Positions 2,241 to 26,494 of a stretch of 46,537 nt of DNA are shown piece by piece. The DNA lies in NCBI GenBank assembly GCA_021405325.1, contig QWII01000078.1, positions 1-46,537 of the forward strand, written 5' to 3'. The position numbers and the translations under genes were made by a program. The notes under the pieces were generated by a model that was not told the DNA's origin, did no database searches, and worked only from the letters and a program-made list of their open reading frames with translations. Positions within the stretch are counted from its first letter, which is position 1. Every line of letters begins with the position of its first letter. Origin of the DNA: Caldilinea sp. CFX5. GTDB lineage: Bacteria; Chloroflexota; Anaerolineae; Caldilineales; Caldilineaceae.

Positions 2241-2289
2241 GTTGGTTGGTTCGTTGGTTGAGCCTGTCGAAACCAACGAACCAACCAAC
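2241..2289. repeat. Hairpin repeat with GAGCCTGTCGA loop, copy A
   Basis: Perfect 19-bp arms (GTTGGTTGGTTCGTTGGTT) around the 11-nt loop GAGCCTGTCGA. It is one of five copies in the window, all intergenic; the others are at 4318, 18475, 22568 and 25446. Confidence 0.85.
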
Positions 2290-2417
2290 TATCGCACAAC
2301 CAGATTGCGCTTTGTTTGCCGTTGTGTTAAGAAAGCGCAACATTGCCTCTTTTTGTTACTCAGGCGTCACTCGGCTGGCGTAGAGTAGGGTAGGCATGAC
2401 ATTCCCGACTGCCGGCG

Positions 2418-4317: not shown

Positions 4318-4364
4318 AGTTGGTTGGTTCGTTGGTTGAGCCTGTCGAAACCAATGAACCAACT
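4318..4364. repeat. Hairpin repeat, copy B (imperfect)
   Basis: AGTTGGTTGGTTCGTTGGTT, loop GAGCCTGTCGA, then a shorter right arm AACCAATGAACCAACT with one mismatch and a lost GGTT unit. It lies 15 nt after the pckG stop, where it might also act as a transcription-terminating hairpin. Confidence 0.8.
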
Positions 4365-4500
4365 GCGTAGAACCGCAGAAGTTGCGCTGATGAATTAATT
4401 TGATGGCGTGTTGGAAACGGTGGAGTCGGGTCTCCAATTGCGCACCGGCTTTGGCACGCTTGCTCTGCCGGCGAATGTGCGGGAAAAGTTGCAACGCCGT

Positions 4501-4819: not shown

Positions 4820-5387
4820 TAGCTTCCGTGGCGACAATCTCTATTTGGATACGATGGTCTTCTATACAGTGCTGCGTGCCAGCAATCCAGCGGCTCGTAC
4901 GCTTTTACGGCAAGTTGAAAGTGGCATTTATCAGGCTTACACGGCATCTCTAAGCTTTGACGAATTAGCTTATCGTTAGGAGTTACGCAGTTGACGGGCG
5001 CTACCAGAGACCTGTCAGGTTTCGCAAACCTGACAGGTCTTGTCCAACTGCGTAACTCCTAATCGTATGTTGCTTGGTTTCATTCGTGACAAATATGGTA
5101 AATCACCGCAGGATCGGCTGCGCCAGGATCAAGCAGGCGTCATAAGAGAATTTTACCCACAAATCGATAGACTTCGCAATCAACTACTGCTACTACCCAA
5201 CCTGACTGTACTTGACATAACAGCGGCGGATTTGATTGCCATGCATCGCAACTGTTTGGCTTATCATTTGCTCCCGCGTGATGCCTTGCACCTGGTTGCC
5301 ATGCAGAAAGTCGGTTGCGAGAATTTGGTCAGTCTTGATAGTGATTTTGATCATATCCCTAATATCCAACGCTACACTTTTGAATAG
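4803..5387 (+). pseudogene. PIN-domain toxin (VapC-like) split by a palindromic insertion
   Basis: The gene reads from ATG 4803 to TATCGT at 4976, where a palindromic element begins with TAG and stops translation after 58 residues. Removing the 85-bp element and one copy of the ATCGT duplication joins DELAYR to MLLGFIRDKYGK in frame. This gives a 164-residue protein ending in QRYTFE. The four acidic positions expected of a PIN ribonuclease are all there: LYLDT, SFDELAY, LPRDALHL and SLDSDFD. So the ancestral protein was a complete RNase toxin and the insertion is probably recent. The right half (from about 5067) keeps a long frame but has no evident start with a ribosome-binding site. The upstream antitoxin gene is intact. 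Confidence 0.85.
4977..5061. mobile_element. 85-bp palindromic mini-element inserted in the PIN gene
   Basis: Terminal inverted repeats are TAGGAGTTACGCAGTTG and its complement. Inside is a second perfect palindrome, AGACCTGTCAGGTTT / AAACCTGACAGGTCT, around CGC. The element is flanked by the 5-bp direct repeat ATCGT (4972-4976 and 5062-5066). It has no coding capacity, so any transposase would act in trans. Confidence 0.85.
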
Positions 5388-10248: not shown

Positions 10249-10302
10249 TCGTTTGCTCCTTCCCACAGCAATTGTCGTCTGGTTGGTTGTAAGCTGACCC
10301 AT

Positions 10303-11131
10303 TCAGTGAATGGCAGCAAGCAACCTGTCACAGAGTAGATCCAAAGCCGCACTCCGGTCACTGCCGGCCAGCCGTTCACCGGTGGCTGTCACCACCATAT
10401 TTTGATAGTCGCTCATCTACAGAAAGTGTGAGGTTTCGACCCGCCACACCTGTCAGGTTTCCAAAACCTGACAGGTGTTCACACTTTCCGTAGATGAGCC
10501 TTTGATAGTTCTGGATGTCGTTGGCAAAGACCAGGTCACTTTGACTCTTTTGCAAATTATAGAAGGCTTGACTAAACAATTCGTCTGCTGTCACCCCTGC
10601 GGTCGTCTTGAAGGTCACTACCATGAGATCGGGCCGCACCCGCTTGATGCCGTCAATGATTTTGTCGCTGGGTCGCATCTGTAATGTTAACGTTTCAATG
10701 TGGTGAAGTCGCTTCTGCTCTTTGCCAAAGTGCTGCATTGTCGTAATATGGCCGCTTTTTCCCACTGCGGTTAAATCTATTGGCGAAAAATCGCAGATCG
10801 CCGCCGCCATGATGAGGGCAACAGCTTGCGCATCCGCCAAAACGGCCTGCACAAAAGCCTGAGCATCGGCATTGGTTTCGGGCGTTGCATGAATCCCCAA
10901 CAGCGCTAACCGGGCCATGGTTGCACTGGAATTGGCGCCAGCCATCTTCGTTTTCACCAGCACAATTTCATGGTTTCCGTCCGGTATCGTACCCAATAGC
11001 CTATGCGCTAAACGGTCGGCAATCTCGATACCGACCGTACCGTAAGCCGGCGCACAGAGGGCAAAGTGGGGTGTGACATGAACCACTGTGCCACCAGTAA
11101 GTATATAGATACGTTTGGCTGGTGAACTCAT
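10303..11131 (-). pseudogene. CoaB-like (phosphopantothenate-cysteine ligase/DFP) protein disrupted by a 91-bp element
   Basis: The protein resembles the DFP/CoaB domain: RIYILTGGTVVHVTPH at the start, LIMAAAICDFSP (compare the AAAVADFRP motif), VTFKTTAGVTADEL and SDLVFANDI. A small palindromic element interrupts codon 207 or so, just after FANDIQNYQ, and shifts the frame. The current product reads 36 foreign residues and stops at 10376. Deleting 91 bp plus one 9-bp target copy restores QNMVVTATGERLAGSDR and a stop at 10305-10303, 242 residues in total. That stop is directly followed by an ATG leading toward argC, so the two were one operon. Family members condense phosphopantothenate with cysteine, but this stand-alone divergent version may act on something else. 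Confidence 0.75.
10410..10500. mobile_element. 91-bp palindromic mini-element, copy 1 (inside the CoaB-like gene)
   Basis: Terminal inverted repeats start C/GGCTCATCTAC and extend about 22 bp (2 mismatches). Inside lies ACACCTGTCAGGTTT / AAACCTGACAGGTGT. It is flanked by the 9-bp direct repeat TTTGATAGT (10401-10409 and 10501-10509). It is identical over all 91 bases to the copy at 24663-24753. Confidence 0.9.
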
Positions 11132-14919: not shown

Positions 14920-14991
14920 AATCAATTCCCCTAATTTACAGTAATTAGGAGAATGCATTCTCCTAATTACTGTAAATTAGGGGAATTGATT
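14920..14991. repeat. 72-bp perfect palindrome without a spacer
   Basis: Every base of 14920-14955 pairs with 14991-14956; the centre is ATGCAT (14953-14958). It immediately precedes the ribosome-binding site of the ATPase gene. Confidence 0.9.
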
Positions 14992-15006
14992 AACAGGAGC
15001 GGAATT

Positions 15007-16140
15007 TTGGGAACCTATCAGCGAGCAATTCAACCGGCGATCGAAGCCAATCTTTATAAAGGCAAAGCCATTATCATTTATGGTGCGCGCCAGGTGGGGA
15101 AAACTACGCTCTGTCGGGCGATTATGCGCAATTATCCAACTGATGCGCTCTACCTGAATTGTGACGAGCCGGATATTCGGCAAGCTTTGACTCATAAGAC
15201 CTCGACGGAACTACGGGTTATGCTTGGTGCAAAAAAACTGATTGTGATTGATGAAGCACAGCGAGTGAAAGATATTGGCCTGACCCTGAAATTGCTCATC
15301 GATACCTACCCGGAAATCCAGATCATCGCAACCGGTTCCTCTTCGTTTGATCTATCGAACGAAACCAAAGAGCCATTGACCGGTCGCAAGATCGAGTACT
15401 ATCTCTACCCGTTGGCCGTTTCAGAATTGCTCGAACAGGAAAGCCGCCTTGAAATGATGCGCTTGCTGGAAACACGCTTACGCTTCGGCAGCTACCCCGG
15501 TGTGATCAACAGCGATGATCCAGCCGCAACGATTGCTGAGATTGCCGGTAGTTATCTTTATCGTGATATTCTGGAGGTGCAAACGGTGAAGAACCCGGAT
15601 CAACTCCACCGTTTATTGCAGGCGTTAGCGCTTCAGGTTGGCAAGGAGGTTGCATATACCGAATTGGGCACTCTGCTTGGTTTGGACAAAGCGACCATTG
15701 CGCGCTACATCACCTTGCTTGAACATGCTTATGTGATTTTTCACCTTCCACCCTTCAGTCGGAATTTACGAAAAGAGTTGGGGAAACAACGCAAGATTTA
15801 TTTCTATGATGTTGGCGTGCGCAATGCTTTGATCAACAACTTTAACCCGCTGCACCTGCGCCAGGATGTTGGCGCCGTGTGGGAAAATTACTTTATCATC
15901 GAACGAATGAAATATAACCAAAATCGCCGCTACCGAGTGAATCACTATTTTTGGCGCACCTATGACGGTCAGGAAGTTGATTATCTGGAAGAAGCGGGCG
16001 GGCAACTGGCGGCGTTTGAATGCAAATGGTCAAAAACCGAGCAACGGGTTCCGCCGGCTTTTGCGAAAGCATACCCTAACAGCACTTTTCAGGTCGTGCA
16101 TTCACAGAATTACCTGGATTTCCTGCTGGCTACCGGCTAG
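15007..16140 (+). CDS. AAA_14/DUF4143 ATPase
   Basis: A 377-residue ATPase. Walker A is YGARQVGKTT (residues 25-34), Walker B is KLIVIDEAQ (about 78-86), and IQIIATGSSSFDL is the sensor segment. The C-terminal DUF4143 domain follows (LTGRKIEYYLYPLAVSEL onward) and ends in a restriction-endonuclease-like core with VDYLEE and FECKWS. Such proteins are common in Bacteria and Archaea; their role is not established. An ATG at 14953 sits in the middle of the 72-bp palindrome. A TTG at 15007 with AGGAG 7 nt upstream is a better start and keeps the usual N-terminus (TYQRAIQPAIEANL). Base composition is AT-richer than the neighbours, consistent with an accessory gene. Confidence 0.88.
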   Translation: MGTYQRAIQPAIEANLYKGKAIIIYGARQVGKTTLCRAIMRNYPTDALYLNCDEPDIRQALTHKTSTELRVMLGAKKLIVIDEAQRVKDIGLTLKLLIDTYPEIQIIATGSSSFDLSNETKEPLTGRKIEYYLYPLAVSELLEQESRLEMMRLLETRLRFGSYPGVINSDDPAATIAEIAGSYLYRDILEVQTVKNPDQLHRLLQALALQVGKEVAYTELGTLLGLDKATIARYITLLEHAYVIFHLPPFSRNLRKELGKQRKIYFYDVGVRNALINNFNPLHLRQDVGAVWENYFIIERMKYNQNRRYRVNHYFWRTYDGQEVDYLEEAGGQLAAFECKWSKTEQRVPPAFAKAYPNSTFQVVHSQNYLDFLLATG

Positions 16141-18474: not shown

Positions 18475-18564
18475 TTGGGTAGTTGGTTGGCGCGTTGGTT
18501 GAGACTTCGGCGTGAGCGCTCAGTCGAACGCTTGTCGAAACCAACGCGCCAACCAACTACCCAA
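18475..18564. repeat. Hairpin repeat, copy C (long loop)
   Basis: 26-bp arms beginning TTGGGTAGTTGGTTGGCGCG. The loop is enlarged to 38 nt: GAGACTTCGG... ...CTTGTCGA. It keeps the GGTTGAG and TTGTCGAAACC ends of the family loop with an insertion between them. Confidence 0.8.
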
Positions 18565-22567: not shown

Positions 22568-22624
22568 GTTAGTTGGTTGGTTCGTTGGTTGAGCCTGTCG
22601 AAACCAACGAACCAACCAACTAAC
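22568..22624. repeat. Hairpin repeat, copy D
   Basis: Perfect 23-bp arms starting GTTAGTTGGTTGGTTCGTTG around the loop GAGCCTGTCGA, between dhaM and ptsH inside the operon. It could moderate transcription between the two genes or stabilise the upstream mRNA. Confidence 0.88.
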
Positions 22625-24643: not shown

Positions 24644-24662
24644 TTTTGTCACAAAAAAGCTT

Positions 24663-24753
24663 CGCTCATCTACAGAAAGTGTGAGGTTTCGACCCGCCAC
24701 ACCTGTCAGGTTTCCAAAACCTGACAGGTGTTCACACTTTCCGTAGATGAGCC
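24663..24753. mobile_element. 91-bp palindromic mini-element, copy 2
   Basis: Identical over 91 bases to 10410-10500. Flanked by AAAAGCTT on the left (24655-24662) and again on the right (24754-24761), an 8-bp duplication. It is inserted right at the dhaL stop codon; the right-hand duplicate overlaps the first base of the stop (24763-24761). Confidence 0.9.
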
Positions 24754-24760
24754 AAAAGCT

Positions 24761-25417
24761 TTAACTCCCACCCTGCCCCCACGTCTCTTGCGCAGCGACA
24801 AATAGATAGTACGCACTGGTGGCGCCGGGATCTTGATGGCCGACGGAGCGGGGGCCTAGATAGCTGGCGCGGCCCTTGCTGGCTTGCAGCATGATGGTGT
24901 GTTGCATCCCATGTTCGGCGGCGGTGCGGGCGGCGCGCAGCGCTTGGGCAAGGCTTTGGCCGCTGGCGACGGCTTGTTCCAAGGCTTCCACCGCCGGCGT
25001 CAGGGTGTCGAGCATGGTCTTTTCTTCGGTGTGCGCTTTGCCCCGCTGTTGCACCCCTTCCAGACCGCTGCGAAACATTTGGGCCAGCCGCATCAGATCG
25101 ACCTGGGTTAGATCGCTGGGCAGATCCTTCGCCGCCCGCAGGAAAAAGGCGCCGTAGAGCGGCCCGGCGGCGCCGCCGACACTGCTGATCAAGGTCATGG
25201 CGACATTGCGCAAGAGGGTGCTGACATTCGGGTAGCCGGCCCCTTCTTCGAGCAGGCGACTACAGACCTGTTCCATGCCGCGCGCCATGTTGGCGCCATG
25301 ATCGGCGTCGCCAATGGCGGCGTCCAATTCAGAAAGATAAGTTTCCTGGGTGTCAATATATTCGCCATAGCGTTGCAGCCAATGGACAAAATGATTCAGC
25401 GTAATCTCCTGGCTCAT
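24761..25417 (-). CDS. dhaL: DhaL, ADP-binding subunit of dihydroxyacetone kinase
   Basis: A 218-residue all-helical subunit that carries a bound ADP/ATP, rephosphorylated by DhaM and used to phosphorylate DHA on DhaK. The Mg-binding Asp cluster is seen in ELDAAIGDADHGANMARGM. Other marks are LISSVGGAAGPLYGAFFLRA, EEKTMLDTLTPAVEAL and the C-terminal RASYLGPRSVGHQDPGATSA. ATG 25417 (MSQEITL) is preferred because the family starts here. The 91-bp mobile element touches its 3' end without altering the product. It is separated from dhaK by hairpin copy E. Confidence 0.95.
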   Translation of the reverse strand: MSQEITLNHFVHWLQRYGEYIDTQETYLSELDAAIGDADHGANMARGMEQVCSRLLEEGAGYPNVSTLLRNVAMTLISSVGGAAGPLYGAFFLRAAKDLPSDLTQVDLMRLAQMFRSGLEGVQQRGKAHTEEKTMLDTLTPAVEALEQAVASGQSLAQALRAARTAAEHGMQHTIMLQASKGRASYLGPRSVGHQDPGATSAYYLFVAAQETWGQGGS

Positions 25418-25445: not shown

Positions 25446-25508
25446 ATCGATTGTTGGTTCGTTCGGTGGTTGAGCTTGTCGAAACCACCGAACGAACCAA
25501 CAATCGAT
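25446..25508. repeat. Hairpin repeat, copy E
   Basis: Perfect 26-bp arms starting ATCGATTGTTGGTTCGTTCG around the loop GAGCTTGTCGA, in the dhaK-dhaL gap and touching the dhaK stop. The arms differ from copies A and D, but both sides changed together. Confidence 0.88.
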
Positions 25509-26494
25509 TACCACCACAACGTCGGCGTGCGGACCGGCGCATCCCAGAGGGCGAGCAGTTCCGGGTCCAGCCGCATGAGCGTTACGATGCAGCCTGCCAT
25601 ATCCAGACTGGTGATATAGTTGCCCACCAGCGTGCGCTTGACCGTGACCGAATAGCGTTCGAGCAGGTGATGCAGGTGACGATAAACGATAAACAATTCA
25701 TGCTGGGGGGTGCCGCCCAGGCCGCTGACCAACGCCAGCACCTGTTCGCCGGCCGACAAGCGTAATTCGTGCATGATCGGCGCAACGAGCATATCGACCA
25801 CTTCATCGGCCTTGGTCATAGCGGCCCGCCGCCGACCCGGCTCGCCATGAATGCCTACGCCAACCTCGATTTGCCCATCAGGCAATTGAAAGGTGGGTCG
25901 TCCCATTGCCGGCGAGACGCAACTGGTCAACGCTACACCCATACTGCGGGTTTGACGGCTTACCCGCTGAGCAATGGCGGTGACCGCCGAAAGGGGCAGT
26001 CCGGCTTCAGCGGCGGCGCCGGCGATCTTTTCCACCAGAATGGTTGCGCCGGTGCCGCGTCGGTTGGCGTCCTGGTCGACGGCGACATCGTCATGGATCA
26101 GCACCGAGGCGACTTTGATGCCTTCGTCGCTGGCCATCTCCATTGCCATCTCCATATTGAGCACGCCCCCCATGTAATTCTTGACCACATAGAGTACGCC
26201 GGCGCCGCTATAGACGGCACGGGTGGCCGCCAGATATTGATAAGGCGTCGGGCTGGTAAAGATCGCCCCCGGACAGGCGGCGTCCAACATGCCAGGCCCG
26301 ACATAGCCAATATTCAGCGGCTCATGACCGCTGCCGCTGCCGCTGACCAAGGCCACTTTATTCATCACCGGCGCATCCTTCCGACAAATATAATTTGGCG
26401 AATAGTGGACACGTAACAGATGATGATAAGCTAGTTCAAACCCTTCTAAGCTTTCAATCGCCGCATTGGAAGGGTGGTTAATTAACTTGTGCAT
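25508..26494 (-). CDS. dhaK: DhaK, substrate-binding subunit of dihydroxyacetone kinase
   Basis: A 328-residue subunit that binds dihydroxyacetone covalently through a His and presents it for phosphorylation. His216 in VGVGIHGEPGRR matches the substrate-binding His218 of E. coli DhaK. The N-terminal substrate loop VALVSGSGSGHEPLNIGYVG, VVKNYMGGVLNMEMA and GTGATILVEKIAGAAAE are all typical. The C-terminal end LDPELLALWDAPVRTPTLWW is complete. It is the first gene of the dha-glpK-pts run and has a promoter about 145 nt upstream. No DhaR or DhaQ/DhaS regulator is found nearby. Confidence 0.96.
   Translation of the reverse strand: MHKLINHPSNAAIESLEGFELAYHHLLRVHYSPNYICRKDAPVMNKVALVSGSGSGHEPLNIGYVGPGMLDAACPGAIFTSPTPYQYLAATRAVYSGAGVLYVVKNYMGGVLNMEMAMEMASDEGIKVASVLIHDDVAVDQDANRRGTGATILVEKIAGAAAEAGLPLSAVTAIAQRVSRQTRSMGVALTSCVSPAMGRPTFQLPDGQIEVGVGIHGEPGRRRAAMTKADEVVDMLVAPIMHELRLSAGEQVLALVSGLGGTPQHELFIVYRHLHHLLERYSVTVKRTLVGNYITSLDMAGCIVTLMRLDPELLALWDAPVRTPTLWW

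What the first reader, a model, noticed from the sequence alone, without database searches (positions are those of the whole stretch)
10401..10509. 91-bp palindromic element with 9-bp target duplication breaks a CoaB-like gene; excision restores the frame
The element (10410-10500) is bounded by TTTGATAGT on both sides. Removing 91 + 9 bases rejoins QNYQ to NMVVTATGERL and gives a 242-codon gene ending right at the argC start region. An identical 91-bp copy at 24663-24753 has its own 8-bp flank duplication (AAAAGCTT). Identity over all bases plus two duplications indicates recent transposition by an enzyme acting in trans.
Basis: seen in the sequence. Interest (0 to 1): 0.75.

Follow-up and report, generated by a model that had tools for sequence, protein, structure and literature searches.

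The report
IS1595-type miniature transposon breaks CoaB-like gene
A 91-base hairpin-shaped jumping element with no genes of its own has landed twice in this Chloroflexota DNA, once cutting off the end of a CoaB-like gene, and its ends match those of IS1595-type transposons in related bacteria, so it is a new family of a well-known kind.

Summary
The 91-bp unit at 10410-10500 and 24663-24753 is identical, has 22-bp inverted ends (20/22), and sits in a 9-bp (TTTGATAGT) and an 8-bp (AAAAGCTT) duplication. It interrupts a DFP/CoaB-like gene; the joined flanks give 242 codons, and the ten closest relatives, the ones I read, are uninterrupted there. The "enzyme in trans" can be named as a family: the ends match those of IS1595 insertion sequences (PF12762) in Anaerolineae. 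Weight matrices built from IS ends rank the four element ends 1-4 of 93,032 window positions. Sister MITEs (72-197 bp, 9 of 23 with exact 8/9-bp duplications) occur in other Anaerolineae. So this is a non-autonomous MITE of IS1595 type: a new family of a known kind. No partner IS lies in the window, the window's genome is not held, and several MITE-rich genomes gave no PF12762 hit. Two extras: the inner palindrome is also a free-standing repeat and the core of an unrelated MITE in the window; and 12 of 16 delimited IS1595-like elements carry an invariant GCGGGGGAAAAAAG at an ORF junction, suggesting programmed recoding.

The parts
10401..10409 (.). left copy of the 9-bp target duplication TTTGATAGT
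10410..10500 (.). MITE copy 1, 91 bp
10410..10431 (+). left terminal inverted repeat CGCTCATCTACAGAAAGTGTGA, IS1595 type
   Evidence: the four element ends rank 1-4 of 93,032 positions with matrices from IS1595 ends
10446..10478 (.). inner palindrome ACACCTGTCAGGTTTCCAAAACCTGACAGGTGT
10479..10500 (-). right terminal inverted repeat GGCTCATCTACGGAAAGTGTGA
10501..10509 (.). right copy of the 9-bp target duplication
10303..11131 (-). interrupted DFP/CoaB-like gene (PF04127); start at 11131, native stop ends at 10303
24655..24662 (.). left copy of the 8-bp target duplication AAAAGCTT
24663..24753 (.). MITE copy 2, identical, between dak2 and an FGGY kinase gene
24754..24761 (.). right copy of the 8-bp target duplication AAAAGCTT

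Best explanation
The unit is a miniature inverted-repeat transposable element (MITE): two transposase-recognition ends around a short spacer and a palindrome, with no gene. An IS1595-family DDE transposase made elsewhere in the cell binds the 22-bp ends, moves the element, and joins it to staggered cuts 8 or 9 bases apart, giving the flanking duplications. One insertion truncated a CoaB-like gene; the other landed just behind the coding part of dak2. Shown: anatomy, duplications, interrupted gene, family-type ends, sister MITEs. Inferred: the trans-acting enzyme and its presence in this genome.
For: Identity and duplications. Uninterrupted relatives. End pattern with up to 3 mismatches in 396 Anaerolineae genomes: many copies in a few (G178 22, G171 19, G165 16, G111 6, G232 6; reversed-pattern control 0 in each of these five, at most 3 in any genome). 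Among 23 short end pairs outside the window, 9 have exact 8- or 9-bp flanking repeats and 16 have at most one mismatch; with right flanks dealt out anew the means are 0.40 and 0.71, maxima 4 and 5 in 2000 deals. Full-length elements with such ends carry the IS1595 transposase domain: L066, 971 bp, PF12762 E 1.2e-16; L080, 1038 bp, right end one mismatch in 21 bases from the window's (two in 22). Protein search in the same 396 genomes: 24 with a match; 16 elements delimited, 6 with an exact 8-bp duplication. Matrix from 20 ends of 10 IS: window ends score 24.1, 24.1, 21.6, 21.6, next best 14.6 of 93,032; best in 20 shuffled windows 21.1, mean of maxima 13.8. Matrix from the 6 IS whose edges an exact duplication confirms: window ends again 1-4 (19.8, 19.8, 18.7, 18.7; next 14.3; best in 30 shuffled windows 18.2, mean of maxima 13.8; with one of the two G279 copies left out 20.1, 20.1, 18.7, 18.7 against a shuffled best of 18.7).
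Against: No full-length IS with the exact ends and no transposase seen in the window; no whole genome held. PF12762 was found in only 4 of 15 genomes with end matches; MITE-bearing G171, G178, G364, G086 and G103 gave none, so in those the partner is lost, missing from the draft, or of another kind. In one search the number of genomes with any match (59 of 396) hardly exceeds the number with a control match (53 by my hand count): single matches are at chance level, only the multi-copy genomes speak. The exact scan of 84,980 species genomes gave three matches: one likely related end (L002, Anaerolineales) and two inside coding sequence of Bacteroidota that look like chance. Of 30 loci (of 34 places) examined, 14 gave a clear end pair, 2 were places already delimited, 14 gave none. 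10 of 16 delimited IS show no exact duplication (two of them begin at a contig edge). IS edges were set by eye on the best inverted repeat, so their common start is partly imposed except where a duplication confirms the edge.
Confidence: 0.88

Rival explanations
1. A REP/REPIN-like palindrome moved by a RAYT (Y1, HUH) tyrosine transposase rather than by a DDE enzyme.
For: The inner palindrome is a dispersed REP-like repeat in other Anaerolineae (56 places in 12 of 190 genomes).
Against: 8/9-bp duplications in the window and in sister elements are not expected of HUH enzymes (recalled); the ends match IS1595; the duplications enclose the whole 91-bp unit, not the palindrome alone.
Confidence: 0.04
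2. A MITE of another DDE family with 8-9-bp duplications (IS1, IS256, IS5/IS903, IS6) whose ends resemble IS1595 by chance.
For: Those families also make 8-9-bp duplications (recalled). The first ORF of L066 gives a weak hit to the IS1 model (17.4 bits, cut-off 100). Several MITE-bearing genomes gave no PF12762 hit.
Against: Matrix results; the transposase domain in full-length elements with such ends is PF12762 (3 of the 4 genomes with a hit).
Confidence: 0.07
3. Assembly or binning artefact: a repeat stitched into the contig.
For: No reads could be looked at; another perfect palindrome in the window (14920-14991) is of the kind that assembly can make.
Against: Two separate sites, each with its own target duplication; the gene's two parts read on in one frame across copy 1 when the flanks are joined.
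Confidence: 0.01

Closest known systems
IS1595-type MITE of Haloquadratum walsbyi (PMC3852290, one table passage seen): 165 bp, 7 copies, IR 25, DR 8, partner ISHwa6
   Same: Short, inverted ends of about 20-25 bp, 8-bp duplications, IS1595 partner.
   Different: Archaeal host, different length; its sequence was not compared here.
IS1595 family of insertion sequences (features as summarised in PMC8101967, passages seen; Siguier 2009 seen only as a citation there)
   Same: 8-bp duplications; DDE_Tnp_IS1595 domain in the presumed partner.
   Different: The window unit has no transposase. Most of the delimited Anaerolineae elements look like two ORFs around a conserved slip site, whereas the family is described as having a single transposase gene.
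Merlin transposons of eukaryotes (PMC8101967, passages seen)
   Same: 8- or 9-bp duplications, terminal 5'-GG (here on the right end; the left end starts CG), DDE_Tnp_IS1595 domain in the presumed partner.
   Different: Eukaryotic; a resemblance of enzyme family only.
MITE of genome G364 (Anaerolineae; L064, L065)
   Same: 92 bp, same layout: end, palindrome, spacer, end; L064 alike over the whole length.
   Different: Four stem pairs of the palindrome differ between L064 and the window, each compensated (read by eye); L065 is less alike.
REP palindromes (GTAG/CGTC classes, PMC3733652, passages seen)
   Same: The inner 33-bp palindrome is a dispersed, mostly free-standing repeat.
   Different: Tags of those classes were not compared; here the palindrome is enclosed in DDE-type ends.

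Membership tests
MITE | short (70-300 bp in PMC3733652), no coding capacity | tested here: met
   91 bp; too short for a transposase; the only ORF of 80 codons or more across it is the interrupted host gene's
MITE | terminal inverted repeats of 15-30 bp | tested here: met
   20 of 22
MITE | target site duplication | tested here: met
   9 bp and 8 bp, exact
MITE | several copies in the genome | tested here: met
   2 identical copies in 46.5 kb; whole genome not held
IS1595-derived | ends like those of IS1595 elements | tested here: met
   two matrices (20 ends of 10 IS; 12 ends of 6 IS with confirmed edges) rank the window ends 1-4 of 93,032
IS1595-derived | 8-bp (7-9) duplications | tested here: met
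   8 and 9 bp here; exact 8 bp in 6 of 16 delimited IS
IS1595-derived | full-length partner IS in the same genome | tested here: inconclusive
   none seen in the window; genome not held; 5 other MITE-bearing genomes without a PF12762 hit
IS1595-derived | mobilised by that transposase | not testable with these tools
   needs a transposition or cleavage assay
REP/REPIN (RAYT) | palindrome moved by a Y1 transposase without target duplication (recalled) | tested here: not met
   duplications present around the whole unit

The most novel reading that the evidence does not exclude
The palindromic core is a portable module: the same REP-like hairpin serves as the body of unrelated MITEs with different ends (IS1595-type at 10410 and 24663; an 18-bp TTAGGAGTTACGCAGTTG type at 4976-5062; possibly another in G138, L140), with stem letters changing in compensated fashion between genomes. 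That would mean the hairpin itself is useful to the movement or upkeep of such elements, and that MITEs can be built by capture of REP-like palindromes.
Probability: 0.3. Interest if true: 0.55.

Novelty: new member of a known kind. Interest (0 to 1): 0.35.

Why it matters
It gives a clean case of gene truncation by a non-autonomous element in a little-studied Chloroflexota lineage and ties a scattered set of short hairpin repeats in Anaerolineae to one transposase family. The shared palindrome core bears on the question of how MITEs arise, and the conserved slip site in the presumed partner elements makes a recoding hypothesis for IS1595-type transposases directly testable.

Tried and rejected
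Viral contigs held no exact match to the end pattern and the plasmid collection no similar DNA. Rfam (gathering threshold) and tRNA searches of the window were empty. L001 and L003 from the genome scan were set aside as chance: single matches in Bacteroidota, L003 inside an ORF on both strands, L001 inside a stretch that reads like a repeat protein though no closed ORF of 100 codons is listed there. The gene's relatives could not be reached as DNA near enough for an empty site: 0 of 396 Anaerolineae at E<=1e-30, 1 of 400 genomes of the phylum (44% identity), and in that genome's order 1 of 82, the same one. The end pattern in those 82 genomes gave 10 with one match each; 8 had a control match by my hand count. 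The idea that the inner palindrome is normally bracketed by inverted repeats was not borne out: 4 of 40 free copies fetched (of 56 places) reached 12 of 14, against 2 of 215 shuffles. Whole-length likeness to other sister MITEs failed for L076, L081 and L050 and was weak for L065, L077 and L060 (7, 4 and 2 of 300 shuffles as good). Papers: 'IS1595'+'MITE' 12 papers listed; 'IS1595'+'target site duplication'+'terminal inverted repeats' 9; 'IS1595'+'frameshift'+'insertion sequence' 36, 15 listed; 'MITE'+'Chloroflexi'+'inverted repeat' 2; 'IS1595 family'+'non-autonomous' 3; a six-term MITE/REP search 73, 15 listed. No listed title or abstract start describes this element; the unlisted papers were not seen, and subscription papers are mostly not held. 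Four papers were seen in passages only.

Full report
What is there. The window holds two identical 91-bp units, at 10410-10500 and 24663-24753. Each is bounded by inverted repeats, CGCTCATCTACAGAAAGTGTGA on the left and GGCTCATCTACGGAAAGTGTGA on the right (20 of 22). Inside are a 14-base spacer and a 33-base palindrome. The whole unit folds back on itself (DNA parameters -36.3 kcal/mol, z -11.55, 0 of 200 shuffles as good). The flanks are exact direct repeats of 9 (TTTGATAGT) and 8 bases (AAAAGCTT).

The broken gene. The ORF at 10376-11131 (minus) carries a DFP domain (PF04127, 35 bits), the CoaB half of coenzyme-A synthesis proteins or a relative of it. Its 70 database hits include itself; the best others are 242 aa at 83% and 81% identity over 85% of the query. 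I read the ten closest: all run straight through the insertion point, 8 of 10 with NYQNMVV. Leaving out the unit and one duplicate in a script gives 242 codons, with the stop ending at 10303 beside the argC start at 10302. The present ORF replaces the last 32 native residues by 41 others. The second copy lies between dak2 and an FGGY kinase gene and leaves the dak2 stop intact. It shows that the same unit inserts elsewhere with its own duplication.

Which organism. No genome is held for the window. The DhaK protein (25508-26494) is 96% identical to a cluster without an organism name and 88% to a protein labelled Caldilineaceae bacterium, with further Caldilineaceae names among the 120 listed hits. 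I therefore take it as Caldilineaceae-like Chloroflexota.

Which transposase: the search. One scan of 84,980 species genomes with GCTCATCTACNGAAAGTGTG gave three matches. Two are in Bacteroidota and look like chance. The third is one end in an Anaerolineales MAG, 21 of 22 bases, with a further likeness inside the end (ACCCGCC, by eye). Allowing 3 mismatches in 396 Anaerolineae genomes, 59 had a match; by my hand count 53 had a match to the reversed control, so single matches mean nothing. A few genomes had many (G178 22, G171 19, G165 16, G111 6, G232 6), with control 0 in each of these five and never above 3 in any genome. I fetched 40 stretches, mostly around such places; 23 hold a short pair of inverted ends spanning 72-197 bp. 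Of these 23, 9 have exact 8- or 9-bp flanking repeats and 16 have at most one mismatch; with the right flanks dealt out anew the means are 0.40 and 0.71 (maxima 4 and 5 of 2000 deals). The other 7 have none, though one of them (L076) has 10 of 11.

Which transposase: the enzyme. One stretch holds a 971-bp element (L066) whose second ORF has a DDE_Tnp_IS1595 domain (PF12762, E 1.2e-16, over the cut-off); the NCBIfam IS1595 model gives 67 bits, under its cut-off of 75. A family search in 15 genomes with end matches found PF12762 in 4. In 3 of these (G165, G067, G111) the outer ends are of the type in question. The G067 right end differs from the window's right end at one of 21 bases, two of 22. 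Against this, MITE-bearing G171, G178, G364, G086 and G103 had no PF12762 hit; they are drafts with many contigs, so loss and missing sequence cannot be told apart.

Test from the enzyme side. A protein search with the G067 DDE ORF found 24 of 396 genomes, 34 places. Of the 30 loci given to the end search, 14 gave clear outer ends; with L066 and L080 that makes 16 delimited elements, 6 with exact 8-bp duplications, two unable to show one because they begin at a contig edge. I set the edges by eye on the best inverted repeat, so the common start ([G/C]GCTC in 31 of 32 ends) is partly imposed. From 10 of them, leaving out G165, G067 and G111, which had been met through the end pattern, I built a matrix of 20 ends; three of the ten (G394, G258, G279) lie in genomes with pattern matches at other places. 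Over all 93,032 positions of the window the four element ends come 1st to 4th (24.1, 24.1, 21.6, 21.6), the fifth 14.6; in 20 base-shuffled windows the best scores average 13.8, with one at 21.1. With only the 6 IS whose edges an exact duplication confirms, the window ends again come 1st to 4th (19.8, 19.8, 18.7, 18.7; fifth 14.3), the shuffled best being 18.2; with one of the two G279 copies left out it is 18.7, equal to the lower window score. The 8/9-bp duplications and the terminal GG agree with what PMC8101967 says of IS1595 and Merlin elements (passages); PMC12561309 gives 7-9 bp for IS1016 elements (passages).

Relatives of the unit. The nearest sister found is a 92-bp MITE in G364 (L064), alike over the whole length (interior alignment score 9.5; best of 300 shuffles 3.0; the shuffles do not keep palindromes). 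The second G364 copy is weaker (7 of 300 shuffles as good). Four stem pairs of the palindrome differ between window and L064, each change matched on the other arm (by eye). Either the MITE lineage is old and keeps its hairpin, or two related palindromes were caught separately.

The palindrome. The core ACCTGTCAGGTTT..AAACCTGACAGGT stands at 56 places in 12 of 190 Anaerolineae genomes; the reversed control shows none in the rows listed. Of 40 fetched, 4 have a flanking inverted repeat of at least 12 of 14, against 2 of 215 shuffles; the three window copies all have one. The window copy at 5010 sits inside a different element, 4976-5062, with perfect 18-bp ends TTAGGAGTTACGCAGTTG. So the same hairpin is the body of two unrelated element types in one window and otherwise mostly stands free. 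Capture of a REP-like repeat is my inference.

Mechanism. Most likely the unit is carried by an IS1595-type DDE transposase in trans (inferred); duplications, ends and repeated insertion are shown. What the hairpin does is not shown. 'Excision restores the frame' is true of the sequence; excision itself is untested.

Novelty. A MITE of IS1595 type has been listed before in an archaeon (PMC3852290, table passage). This is a new family of that known kind in Chloroflexota. The paper searches listed nothing that describes it.

Noticed in passing
IS1595-like elements in L066, L080, L091, L092, L093, L095, L096, L098, L100, L101, L103, L114: 12 of 16 delimited elements share an invariant GCGGGGGAAAAAAG where the zinc-ribbon/HTH ORF meets the DDE ORF. 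In 10 of the 12 the DDE part lies in the +1 frame; in 2 it is one ORF. Some copies carry further breaks (G067, G156). This suggests programmed frameshifting or transcript slippage in a family described as having a single transposase gene.
   Followed up: partly
window 4976-5062: A second MITE-like element with perfect 18-bp ends TTAGGAGTTACGCAGTTG around the same palindrome core; the flanks share only TCG.
   Followed up: partly
window 14920-14991: A perfect 72-bp palindrome without loop, overlapping the start of ORF 14953-16140 (AAA_14/DUF4143); could be real or an assembly fold-back.
   Followed up: no
window 2241-2291, 4319-4369, 18477-18559, 22572-22622, 25453-25503: Five places with a palindromic repeat of the type GTTGGTTGGTTCGTTGGTTGAGCCTGTCGAAACCAACGAACCAACCAAC, another dispersed hairpin family.
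   Followed up: no
L063 versus L064 (G364): The 74-bp MITE looks like an 18-base internal deletion of the 92-bp one, within the palindrome.
   Followed up: no
L046-L053, L055 (G178): MITEs of 125-197 bp; the four folded (L046, L048, L049, L050) carry different combinations of further hairpins between the same ends.
   Followed up: no
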